From Bradyrhizobium sp. sBnM-33 (lineage in GTDB: Bacteria > Pseudomonadota > Alphaproteobacteria > Rhizobiales > Xanthobacteraceae), in contig NZ_CP136624.1 in NCBI RefSeq assembly GCF_032917945.1, positions 5,146,001-5,210,000 on the forward strand: 64,000 nt of DNA. Reading direction: 5' to 3'. Made by a program: the position numbers and the translations under genes. Below are positions 59,014 through 63,292 of the stretch, one piece after another (within the stretch, counting starts at the first letter, position 1; every line of letters begins with the position of its first letter). The notes beneath the pieces are model-generated. The model was given only the letters and a program-made list of their open reading frames with translations. It was not told where the DNA came from and ran no database searches.

Positions 59014-59088
59014 GTAGCCCGGATGAGCGAAGCGAGGTCCGGGTTTTGGTTGTGCGGATCCCGCATATCGCTTTACTCATGCGGGCTA
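59014..59088. repeat. Intergenic repeat (gtagcccggatggagcg family), copy 3
   Basis: Bounded by gtagcccggatgagcg and gcgggcta. Its right end provides the stop codon (cta, 59086-59088) of the PEP-CTERM gene read on the minus strand. Confidence 0.75.
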
Positions 59089-59889
59089 TTTGCTGAAATT
59101 CAGACGACCGCGCCTGGAAGCCATGAAGCCAACACCAGCAAAGCCCAGGATGATCATTGCCCAAGTAGATGGCTCGGGGACAGCGGCGATAGAGTTTCCT
59201 ACGCCAGGACTAAGTTGGATTTGGTAGCCGTCCGGCACCGTAAAGACAGGATCGATCATCGTGCGATTACTTGCGCTGCAAGCCTCCAATCCGCATCCAG
59301 CATAGACGGTACCCTCCAGCATCACATTGTAGATTGTGTTGGTCAAAAAGGCGTAGTTGCCATTAACTGCAAAATCCAGTCCGGTCCCGCCATTGCCTGC
59401 GGCAGTCGACCAAGTGTAATTGCCTACTGAGGCATAGGAGTTGCCAATCCTAAGCACCGCCACGTTTCCTTCGGTAGTCACGGCGCCCAAGGCATTTATA
59501 TGGGTGTGCACGACTCCCGGCTGCCCGGCTATGTAGATTTGGTACTGCATAGTGAAGTGTGCCGTCGCGCTAGCTCCTCCAACATATCCCGTCCCTGGAA
59601 TATATCCCGGCGTAGAGGCCGCAGCAGTCATTTCGAAGAAGGGTGCCGGAGTTAGGGCTGTGTGAAACCTGAAGGCAGAGGTACTCCCGCCCGAGTGTGT
59701 GATGTCCAGATTGTTTCCCGCGGTGAGGCTCCCACTGTAGTTTCGCCCGGTCAATGCCCCATCAATCCATTGACCGGAATAGCCGCCGCCGTAAGTCACC
59801 GGGCCTAAAACGACATCTGCGGATGCAGCTTTTGTCGAGAGCACCACGACAAGCACGATGTTAGCAGCAACGAATCGGCGAAAACTCAT
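59086..59889 (-). CDS. PEP-CTERM sorting-domain protein
   Basis: A 267-residue secreted protein. Signal peptide after MSFRRFVAANIVLVVVLSTK (cleaved near ASA), a beta-rich middle (YGGGYSGQWIDGALTGRNYS, GNNLDITHSGGSTSAFRF) and a C-terminal sorting tail: VPEPSTWAMIILGFAGVGFM and a basic end ASRRGRLNFSK. The tail is cut by an exosortase (EpsH/XrtA type), not encoded in the window. ATG 59889 is chosen for its GGAGG site; an ATG six codons upstream is weaker. A region homologous to the upstream of the desaturase gene starts 15 bp before it. Confidence 0.88.
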   Translation of the reverse strand: MSFRRFVAANIVLVVVLSTKAASADVVLGPVTYGGGYSGQWIDGALTGRNYSGSLTAGNNLDITHSGGSTSAFRFHTALTPAPFFEMTAAASTPGYIPGTGYVGGASATAHFTMQYQIYIAGQPGVVHTHINALGAVTTEGNVAVLRIGNSYASVGNYTWSTAAGNGGTGLDFAVNGNYAFLTNTIYNVMLEGTVYAGCGLEACSASNRTMIDPVFTVPDGYQIQLSPGVGNSIAAVPEPSTWAMIILGFAGVGFMASRRGRLNFSK

Positions 59890-59903
59890 ACTTAAATCCC
59901 CCT

Positions 59904-59993
59904 CCATTTCGACCCACGGCAGGACCTCGAAGGCATGCTGGTCCTCATAACTTTGATTGTCTCGGGACGCTTGTCGTGACCCAAATAGGCTAC
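59904..59993 (-). promoter_or_regulatory. Shared upstream element, copy 1
   Basis: About 90 bp upstream of the PEP-CTERM gene match 61966-62049 upstream of the desaturase gene. Conserved blocks are ccatttcga, ggtcctca, gattgtctcg and a 23-bp identical core (59971-59993, including cgtgacccaaataggctac). The spacing to each start is alike (about 10-15 bp). Read on the minus strand it is a plausible duplicated promoter with a common operator. Confidence 0.7.
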
Positions 59994-60020
59994 ACGAAGG
60001 TTAGCTGACCACCTGGCGCG

Positions 60021-60953: not shown

Positions 60954-61956
60954 GCTTGGCACCAATTGCGATGGTATCGGGTGTCTCTGATTGATCCCGC
61001 GGCAATCTTATGACGTTCCAGACCAGTCCAAGTTTTTCCAGCAACGTGATGATGTGACCGTTTATGTCGAGCTGCCCTTCTGTAAACCCATGAAAAGCTG
61101 AGCGCGGAAAGCGGTGATGGTTGTTGTGCCAACCGTCACCAAATGTGAGAATTGCTAGAATTCGATTGTTCTTGCTTCCGTTGCCTTGCGAATACGCCTC
61201 TTCGCCAAAGAGATGGCCGAAAGAATTGACGCCCCAGACAACGTTGTGAAGTACCGTGGTGCGGAGGCATCCGCCGATAAGCATCGCAGTCCATGCTGCA
61301 TCCGGACCAGCGAGTAAGTAACCGTACCCGTAAGGCATGGCCAAGGAAATTGCGGGCCAGATCCAGTGCGTTCGATGGAAAAAGGCAATCAGCCTGTTGT
61401 CGGTAACACTTGCTCCGTAAACACTGACATCTGTCGTGGTGCAATCAAACAACCAACCGACGTGGGCGTGCCAAATTCCCTGAAGTCCACTGAGAGAAGA
61501 GCCCCATTCGTCAACAAGCGGTGAGTGCACATCTCCGAATTGATCTGTGTGGGCGTGGTGGCGCCTGTGATCTACAACCCAGCGTGCAATAGACCCCTGA
61601 AAAGCCGTCGAGCCAAGCGCACCCAACAAGAACGCGATTGCTGGGGTGGTCTCAAAACTTTTGTGCGAGAAGTACCGATGCAGGCCGAGCGCGACGCCCA
61701 AACCGACAAGTACGTAAAAGAGCACGAACGCAGAAATATCAATCCATGTAACGCCGTGCTGCACTATGTGAAGCCCGGCCCAAAAGCTACCCAACAGAGG
61801 AATTCCGACGAGTAGTCCATTCTCGACACGTTTTCTAATTGCCGGCAAGCCGCCGAACTGGACGCCTTCAAAGATTACAGGCTGCAAGAAACTGTCCACT
61901 GAAACGGAGCGGGTCGCCACTACCTTGCGAACCACGGTTGACAATGCAGTGAGCAT
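60946..61956 (-). CDS. Membrane fatty-acyl desaturase
   Basis: A 336-residue diiron desaturase with three histidine boxes: HRYFSH (about 93-98), HRRHHAH (about 130-136) and HNNHHRFP (about 277-284), the delta-9 acyl-CoA/acyl-lipid type, with four predicted membrane helices. It would put a double bond into a fatty acyl chain using O2 and electrons from a ferredoxin or cytochrome b5-like donor, not present in the window. ATG 61954-61956 follows GAAATGG. It is the first gene of an operon with the methyltransferase. Confidence 0.9.
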   Translation of the reverse strand: MLTALSTVVRKVVATRSVSVDSFLQPVIFEGVQFGGLPAIRKRVENGLLVGIPLLGSFWAGLHIVQHGVTWIDISAFVLFYVLVGLGVALGLHRYFSHKSFETTPAIAFLLGALGSTAFQGSIARWVVDHRRHHAHTDQFGDVHSPLVDEWGSSLSGLQGIWHAHVGWLFDCTTTDVSVYGASVTDNRLIAFFHRTHWIWPAISLAMPYGYGYLLAGPDAAWTAMLIGGCLRTTVLHNVVWGVNSFGHLFGEEAYSQGNGSKNNRILAILTFGDGWHNNHHRFPRSAFHGFTEGQLDINGHIITLLEKLGLVWNVIRLPRDQSETPDTIAIGAKHG

Positions 61957-61965
61957 CTCGGGAAG

Positions 61966-62049
61966 CCATTTCGATCGACGGCGGGATCACGCCGGTCCTC
62001 AAAGCTTTACGATTGTCTCGAGTTGATTGTCGTGACCCAAATAGGCTAC
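61966..62049 (-). promoter_or_regulatory. Shared upstream element, copy 2
   Basis: This is the counterpart of 59904-59993, upstream of the desaturase-methyltransferase pair. The identical 23-bp core lies at 62027-62049. The divergent LuxR gene begins 101 bp to the right, so the same interval may hold its promoter too. Confidence 0.7.
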
Positions 62050-62149
62050 GAAAAGAAGATTGGATGACGGGTCTGTTGCCGAAATGTGACTAGTTAAGGT
62101 TGTATTGGGGCTGCAATGTTGCTTTGTAGGCGCGCCGCAGGCGGTCCGG

Positions 62150-63292
62150 ATGATTAACTATGGATCACAGGATCGGCTTCTAACAGCGGTCGACGCTATA
62201 TACGAAGCAGCTACGGACCCATCGAAATGGCCAGCCGCGTTGGGAGCAATTGCGGATTGCTTCGGGGATGTGGGCGCGGTGTTGGTTTGGCGTCGGGATG
62301 ATGGATCGTTTGGTACGATTGTATCCGATACGCTAATAGATGCACAAAGAGATTACGAAGAGAGTGGTTGGGCCAACCGCGATATTAGAGCTACTCGGGC
62401 GACAGAGCGTGGCTATTTCTTTAACGGAGTGCCGATCACTGACCGGCACCTCTGTTCACCCGACGAAATCAGAAATGACCCGTGCTACACGCAATTCTTA
62501 GCCAAGCAAGGGCTCGGCTGGGTTGCGGGAATCGCCGTGTCTCCGGAGCCGCACGTCGGAGTTCTTGTCAGCGTTCAGCGCGATTCTAGCCGCAAGTCGG
62601 AATTCTCGGATGATGAGCTCGGCTTGCTGGTCATTATTGGCCGGCATATTGAGAAATCACTGCGCCTGTCAATCAGACTGCTCGATGCCGAGCTAACTAG
62701 ACTTGGACTGGGTGAAGCATTGGCGAGAATCGGAATCGGGGTTTTTTCACTGGATTCACTCGGCCGCGTCGTTTTTTCAAATCCAGCAGGGCGACGGCTC
62801 ATCGGAGATGAACTTCATTTGGTGCAGGATCGATTGCGGATCGGTTCCGGCAGTACTCGTGAAGCGATTGATGAGGCTATCACGCATACGCTCCGCGGAT
62901 ATCGTCACGATTTGGTCGCTGAGCCAAAACCTTTGCTCGTTCACTCCCTCAACTCGAACCGGCGGCTGGTAATCTATTTGCTTCCAATCGGGACGCGGAC
63001 CAGTCTCGCCGAGGAGTTTCTAACGAACACACGAGCTATTGTGCTCGTCATCGAACAGAAGCTCGACGAACCTCCTGATCCAACACTAGTTCGCGACGTT
63101 TTAGGCCTCACCTTGGGAGAAGCCCGCATCGCCGCACTTGTGGGCTCAGGCCTGCCACCCAGAGAGGCGGCAGAGCGACTTGGGATAGCGGAAGATACAG
63201 CGCGGAATTTGCTCAAGCGCGTATTTTCAAAAGTGGGCGTCTCTCGGCAGAGCGAATTAGTAGGGTTACTAGCAAAGCTCGTGCTTCGCTAA
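62150..63292 (+). CDS. LuxR-family transcriptional regulator
   Basis: A 380-residue regulator. ATG 62150 (MINYGSQDRLLTAVDAIYEA) is preferred over a TTG at 62105. Residues about 10-180 form a sensor region resembling GAF/PAS-type regulators (FGDVGAVLVWRRDDGSFGTI, GWVAGIAVSPEPHVGVLVSV); a second PAS-like part follows (ARIGIGVFSLDSLGRVVFSN). The C-terminal LuxR helix-turn-helix is LTLGEARIAALVGSGLPPRE, AAERLGIAEDTARNLLKRVF, SKVGVSRQSELVGLL. The residues of the classical AHL-binding domain were not seen. Divergent from the desaturase operon, it is the natural candidate to regulate it. Confidence 0.85.
   Translation: MINYGSQDRLLTAVDAIYEAATDPSKWPAALGAIADCFGDVGAVLVWRRDDGSFGTIVSDTLIDAQRDYEESGWANRDIRATRATERGYFFNGVPITDRHLCSPDEIRNDPCYTQFLAKQGLGWVAGIAVSPEPHVGVLVSVQRDSSRKSEFSDDELGLLVIIGRHIEKSLRLSIRLLDAELTRLGLGEALARIGIGVFSLDSLGRVVFSNPAGRRLIGDELHLVQDRLRIGSGSTREAIDEAITHTLRGYRHDLVAEPKPLLVHSLNSNRRLVIYLLPIGTRTSLAEEFLTNTRAIVLVIEQKLDEPPDPTLVRDVLGLTLGEARIAALVGSGLPPREAAERLGIAEDTARNLLKRVFSKVGVSRQSELVGLLAKLVLR

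What the first reader, a model, noticed from the sequence alone, without database searches (positions are those of the whole stretch)
59086..63292. Candidate lipid-signal or surface-lipid island: desaturase, PhcB-like methyltransferase, LuxR regulator and PEP-CTERM protein
A membrane desaturase and a methyltransferase are translationally coupled (8-bp overlap) and face a divergent LuxR-type regulator. Nearby is a secreted PEP-CTERM protein with a duplicated copy of the same upstream region. The methyltransferase carries a segment I associate with fatty-acid methyl-ester signal synthases. Together they could make an unsaturated fatty acid methyl ester, sensed by the LuxR protein, that controls a surface protein. 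The enzymatic families are well supported; the signalling role is inference. The region also has AT-richer codons than the rest, suggesting acquisition.
Basis: partly seen in the sequence, partly recalled or inferred. Interest (0 to 1): 0.75.

Follow-up and report, generated by a model that had tools for sequence, protein, structure and literature searches.

The report
LuxR-linked lipid methyltransferase signalling circuit
In a Bradyrhizobium chromosome, a regulator that looks like a bacterial signal receptor sits beside a fatty-acid desaturase and a methyltransferase of a kind linked to lipid signals, and a shared DNA site suggests that it controls both this enzyme pair and a surface protein.

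Summary
The four genes are as described: PEP-CTERM protein, PhcB-like methyltransferase (MT) and desaturase overlapping by 8 bp, and a divergent LuxR-type regulator, in a 53-55% GC patch. The 'duplicated upstream region' holds a near-palindrome, TGACCCAAATAGGCTA; at up to one mismatch to its pattern the 9.2 Mb genome has two sites, both here. It belongs to a genus-wide site, about TGACCCAWWTGGGTCA. The MT is rare (3 of 265 genus genomes; family in 9 of 80 with a second query). All ten MT loci examined in those nine genomes have this site upstream of the MT or its putative operon; eight of nine genomes have a LuxR-type neighbour. On seven loci not used to define the site, none of 417 permuted palindromes does as well. 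The desaturase-MT pair recurs in two other genomes and apparently five metagenome contigs, with correlated divergence. The LuxR N-domain model resembles acyl-homoserine-lactone-binding domains, though GAF domains come close. Some distant MT relatives adjoin sensor kinases, as phcB adjoins phcS. Best reading: an autoregulated lipid-signal circuit with a PhcB-like synthase in LuxI's place. Product, ligand and direction of control are inferred. Against: most LuxR orthologues have no MT nearby.

The parts
59086..59907 (-). Secreted PEP-CTERM protein (ATG at 59907 or 59889), second target of the operator
   Evidence: 86% orthologue in G232 at the same place
59908..60009 (-). Upstream region of the PEP-CTERM gene, 83% identical to the region upstream of the desaturase
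59977..59992 (.). Operator copy 1, TGACCCAAATAGGCTA
60021..60953 (-). PhcB-like class I SAM methyltransferase (long frame from 60965)
60946..61956 (-). Membrane acyl-CoA-type desaturase with three histidine boxes, overlapping the MT by 8 bp
61970..62068 (-). Upstream region of the desaturase, the other copy of the duplicated region
62033..62048 (.). Operator copy 2, TGACCCAAATAGGCTA, 77 bp from the desaturase ATG and 102 bp from the luxR ATG
62150..63292 (+). LuxR-type regulator: autoinducer-domain/GAF-like N-domain, middle PAS-like region, C-terminal HTH (alternative start 62105)

Best explanation
An autoregulated, quorum-sensing-like lipid-signal circuit. The LuxR-type regulator binds a palindromic operator (about TGACCCAWWTGGGTCA); one copy controls the desaturase-MT operon, the other the PEP-CTERM surface protein. 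The desaturase puts a double bond into an acyl chain and the PhcB-like MT methylates the acyl product, most likely to an unsaturated fatty-acid methyl ester. That lipid is sensed by the N-terminal domain of LuxR, which closes a feedback loop tying signal production to a surface protein. Shown by sequence: the gene pair, the operator, its place upstream of all ten MT loci examined, the LuxR neighbours, the model folds. Inferred: product, ligand, DNA binding and direction of control.
For: Operator upstream of the MT or its putative operon at 10 of 10 loci; on the 7 not used to define it, 13 mismatches in all against at least 26 for 417 permuted palindromes. LuxR-type neighbour in 8 of 9 MT genomes. 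22 genus-wide sites, 0 for the reversed control, in 265 genomes; LuxR-type gene within 1.5 kb at 10 of 21 site loci against 0 of 27 control loci. Desaturase beside MT in all three genomes with the close MT; five shared contig lengths; distances correlate, r 0.92, and 0.77 without G232. N-domain best matches by VIA-align are acyl-HSL receptors. Distant MT relatives adjoin sensor kinases at L087, L009, L006.
Confidence: 0.48

Rival explanations
1. Membrane and surface remodelling without cell-cell signalling: LuxR senses a physical or internal cue through a GAF/PAS-type domain and switches on a desaturase, an MT that modifies membrane lipid chains or head groups, and a surface protein together.
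For: Operator sites and LuxR orthologues mostly occur without an MT, often near genes that look like secreted or surface proteins; GAF and phytochrome domains match the N-domain nearly as well or better; desaturases usually act on membrane acyl chains (recalled).
Against: MTs of three sequence types, two of them without a desaturase, keep the same operator and LuxR neighbours; family members elsewhere adjoin sensor kinases; label of the close family.
Confidence: 0.3
2. The MT acts on a non-lipid small molecule or a protein; the desaturase is an unrelated member of the same operon.
For: Pfam and PDB matches are spread over N-, O- and C-methyltransferases such as NodS, CheR and phosphoethanolamine methyltransferases; the best structural match, 3ocj, has no assigned substrate.
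Against: Co-inheritance with a desaturase and correlated distances; 8-bp overlap kept in a comparable form in G232 and G066.
Confidence: 0.15
3. A decaying or idle island without a current function.
For: AT-rich; close MT in only 3 of 265 genomes; G232 luxR frameshifted; MT remnant in G205.
Against: All four frames open here; pair kept at 91-94% identity in G232 and 56-62% in G066 in the same order; histidine boxes kept in 8 of 8 desaturases.
Confidence: 0.07

Closest known systems
[quoted passage not shown]
   Same: A methyltransferase of a family that databases label as PhcB-like; distant members lie beside sensor kinases as phcB lies beside phcS (PMC8578825, passages).
   Different: Here a LuxR-type regulator and a desaturase replace PhcS/PhcR; no sensor kinase in the island; product unknown; no direct comparison with PhcB made.
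LuxI/LuxR acyl-homoserine-lactone quorum sensing
   Same: LuxR-type regulator beside a putative synthase, palindromic box upstream of the synthase, N-domain model like CepR2, QscR and LasR.
   Different: Synthase is a methyltransferase, not LuxI; extra PAS-like middle region; operator TGACCCAWWTGGGTCA; weak GerE match; no autoinducer-domain Pfam hit shown.
Acyl-CoA delta-9 desaturases (SCD1 type)
   Same: PF00487, PDB matches 4zyo and 4ymk at about 1e-21, three histidine boxes.
   Different: Overlaps an MT gene and forms its own branch with other MT-linked copies: genus homologues outside the three pairs are at most 41% identical in the rows listed.
PEP-CTERM/exosortase surface proteins
   Same: C-terminal PEPxxWA sorting signal; one exosortase and 16 PEP-CTERM hits in the genome.
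   Different: This one has the LuxR-linked operator upstream.

Membership tests
PhcB (Phc quorum sensing) | Class I SAM methyltransferase | tested here: met
   Methyltransf_25; model pLDDT 93.4 with class I matches
PhcB (Phc quorum sensing) | Sequence kinship with an authenticated PhcB | tested here: inconclusive
   Only database names of close relatives (14 of 120 listed); no authenticated PhcB was at hand
PhcB (Phc quorum sensing) | Gene in one operon with a PhcS-type sensor kinase | tested here: not met
   None among the genes read at 54000-73500; seen beside distant relatives only
PhcB (Phc quorum sensing) | Makes a 3-hydroxy fatty acid methyl ester | not testable with these tools
   Needs chemistry
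LuxI/LuxR quorum sensing | LuxR with autoinducer-binding domain | tested here: inconclusive
LuxI/LuxR quorum sensing | C-terminal GerE-type HTH | tested here: met
   38 of 42 aligned members match GerE at E up to 1, best 1.5e-8; this protein alone is below the cut-off
LuxI/LuxR quorum sensing | LuxI synthase beside it | tested here: not met
   Neighbours are desaturase, MT, PEP-CTERM
Acyl-CoA desaturase (PF00487) | FA_desaturase domain and three histidine boxes | tested here: met
   66.7 bits, cut-off 29.7; HRYFSH, HRRHH, HNNHH
Acyl-CoA desaturase (PF00487) | Acts on acyl-CoA at delta-9 | not testable with these tools
   Substrate unknown
PEP-CTERM proteins | C-terminal PEP motif and an exosortase in the genome | tested here: met
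   29.5 bits, cut-off 20.7; exosortase at C1:3862511-3863278

The most novel reading that the evidence does not exclude
A new class of quorum-sensing circuit in Bradyrhizobium: PhcB-family methyltransferases take the place of LuxI, and a LuxR-family protein with an autoinducer-like domain is the direct receptor of a fatty-acid methyl ester, with subfamilies that tailor the acyl chain (here by a co-transcribed desaturase) and surface proteins as outputs.
Probability: 0.37. Interest if true: 0.87.

Novelty: new variant of a known kind. Interest (0 to 1): 0.7.

Why it matters
Fatty-acid methyl-ester signalling is known from the Phc system, where a sensor kinase reads the signal, while LuxR receptors are known with LuxI-made lactones. 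A LuxR-type regulator repeatedly set beside PhcB-like enzymes under one shared DNA box would join the two kinds, give a list of synthase-regulator-operator sets in soil and nodule bacteria that can be tested directly, and name a ligand class for a group of orphan Bradyrhizobium LuxR-type regulators. The operator alone defines a small set of candidate target genes.

Tried and rejected
Recent acquisition: not supported (island 90.6% identical to G232, flanks 89.7 and 90.0%, same place).

Duplication as the whole explanation of the shared region: not sufficient, because the site recurs upstream of MTs in other genomes.

Desaturase beside every such MT: no. tblastn found none in the held stretches of the eight loci L004-L011, and I saw none among the frames of L086 (G988, 1.5 kb each side).

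Plasmids: no desaturase match at 1e-40; the MT finds 126 records, 116 of them Rhizobium, only one covering 80% of the query; the rows listed are 27-31% identical; in the two I read it lies beside a GGDEF gene. Wider genomes: 1 of 385 of the class at 1e-25, this one; 8 of 398 of the phylum at 1e-15, this one, G988 at 42% and six at 31-33%.

N-terminal extension of the L087 and L009 MTs as a PilZ domain: my impression; Pfam listed none.

Literature: searches listed no paper that, by title and abstract start, treats a PhcB-like MT paired with a LuxR regulator; only PMC9102662 and PMC8578825 were opened, passages only. The library lacks most subscription papers.

Full report
Observation. All four genes and the stated details are present. 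MT and desaturase overlap by 8 bp (60946-60953). The two upstream regions align over 107 columns at 83% ungapped identity. The window is 5146001-5210000 of a single-contig genome of 9184954 bases.

The enzyme pair. The desaturase matches acyl-CoA desaturases; the MT is a class I methyltransferase. Of 405 MT homologues the best 120 are listed; 14 of these bear the name 'extracellular factor (EF) 3-hydroxypalmitic acid methyl ester biosynthesis protein', 12 'SAM-dependent methyltransferase', most no name. Among 265 genus genomes the MT is found at 1e-20 in three: this one, G232 (91%) and G066 (56%). In both others the desaturase orthologue (94%, 62%) lies directly upstream. Between the two homologue lists five longest-contig lengths coincide: 4105, 4910, 5438, 6991, 209717. 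With lengths jittered, 1.5 coincidences are expected overall (5 or more in 84 of 5000 trials) and 0.23 for lengths over 4000, where all five lie (maximum 4); I infer that these contigs carry both genes. Over the eight pairs MT and desaturase distances correlate at r 0.92 (permutation p 0.0001), or 0.77 without G232 (p 0.004).

The operator. The duplicated region holds TGACCCAAATAGGCTA (59977-59992 and 62033-62048). At up to one mismatch to TGACCCAWWTRGGYTA this genome has two sites (reversed control 1), G066 three (control 1), G232 one (control 0). One G066 site lies between luxR and desaturase; the other two lie near a second LuxR-type gene. In G232 a one-mismatch site lies between luxR and a small gene that precedes the desaturase, and another before the PEP-CTERM gene. 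In 265 genomes TGACCCAWWTGGGTNA has 22 distinct sites in 18 genomes and none for the reversed control. A LuxR-type gene lies within 1.5 kb at 10 of 21 site loci (one of the 22 sites had no locus of its own; one hit is a 68-residue fragment), 8 of 18 without G066, against 0 of 27 desaturase loci used as control. Only 1 of the 21 has an MT.

The MT-LuxR-operator link. LuxR orthologues at 1e-60 occur in 27 of 265 genomes. Beside them I found other MTs of the family in G245 and G026 and a remnant in G205. A search of 80 genomes with the G245 enzyme found the family at 1e-10 in nine: 6 of 27 LuxR-positive ones, G066, and 2 of 52 others, G015 and G027. Those two have a divergent LuxR gene of a second subfamily, with the operator between. 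In the nine genomes ten MT loci were examined (G245 has two); all ten have the operator, at 1-3 mismatches to TGACCCAWWTGGGTCA, upstream of the MT or of the first gene of its putative operon. At six of the seven loci not used to define it, it begins 69-73 bp before the start position used (35 at the G205 remnant). These seven total 13 mismatches; 417 permuted palindromes gave 26 or more. Eight of nine genomes have a LuxR-type neighbour; G016's 9.9 kb stretch shows none. From the LuxR side the link is weaker: 3 of 27 other orthologue loci have an MT within 1.5 kb, and 10 of 28, own included, an operator at up to 3 mismatches (control 0).

The wider MT family. A profile of 35 close members aligns with one of seven distant relatives at 100% probability, E 1.2e-47; the GYxGD residues are shared by 12 of 12 proteins aligned. 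Three distant members adjoin a sensor kinase: L087 (kinase start overlaps the MT stop), L009 (divergent), L006 (downstream); two of these kinases have below-cut-off MASE8 membrane-sensor matches. Others adjoin GGDEF genes. In Ralstonia phcB, phcS, phcR and phcQ form one operon, and PhcB makes a 3-hydroxy fatty acid methyl ester sensed by PhcS (PMC8578825, abstract and passages).

Mechanism. The simplest account is an autoregulated circuit: LuxR at the operator controls the synthase operon and a surface protein; desaturase and MT make a methylated, probably unsaturated acyl signal; LuxR senses it. Gene order, operator and conservation are shown; product, binding, ligand and sign of control are inferred. 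Remodelling of membrane and surface without signalling remains a serious rival, since most LuxR orthologue loci and most operator sites have no MT nearby.

Verdict. What is new is that the duplicated upstream region carries a LuxR-linked operator that precedes each of the ten MT loci of this family that I examined in the genus.

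Noticed in passing
L053 5440-6601 (G232): The G232 luxR is split by a frameshift and is about 55% identical to this one, though its neighbours are 86-94% identical, as if the regulator had been exchanged.
   Followed up: partly
L063-L080: Many genus-wide operator sites outside the MT loci lie near genes that read like secreted or surface proteins (repeat-rich, autotransporter-like or PEP-CTERM, e.g. 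L069, L075, L076, L077), by eye from the frames.
   Followed up: no
L122 (G245, 9.8 kb contig): Two MTs of different types, two divergent LuxR-type genes of different subfamilies, a small secreted-like protein and three operator copies on one contig.
   Followed up: partly
L006, L009, L087: Relatives of the MT in a Desulfobacteraceae MAG, a Spirochaetaceae MAG and an unnamed Pseudomonadota genome adjoin membrane or hybrid histidine kinases, a phcB-phcS-like order.
   Followed up: partly
58757-58954 (-): Small secreted-looking, lysine-rich 65-residue protein of island-like GC (53.5%); no Pfam or NCBIfam hit. A small secreted-like frame also lies between luxR and desaturase in G232, without a tblastn match to it.
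   Followed up: no
57411-58523 (+): 370-residue protein with a weak, below-cut-off match of its C-terminal part to phosphonate-binding proteins.
   Followed up: no
G000:C1:3862511-3879713: The one exosortase found lies among several PEP-CTERM genes, about 1.3 Mb from this island.
   Followed up: no
L053 4658-5353 (G232): A frame that reads like a REP-associated transposase next to the G232 luxR (by eye).
   Followed up: no
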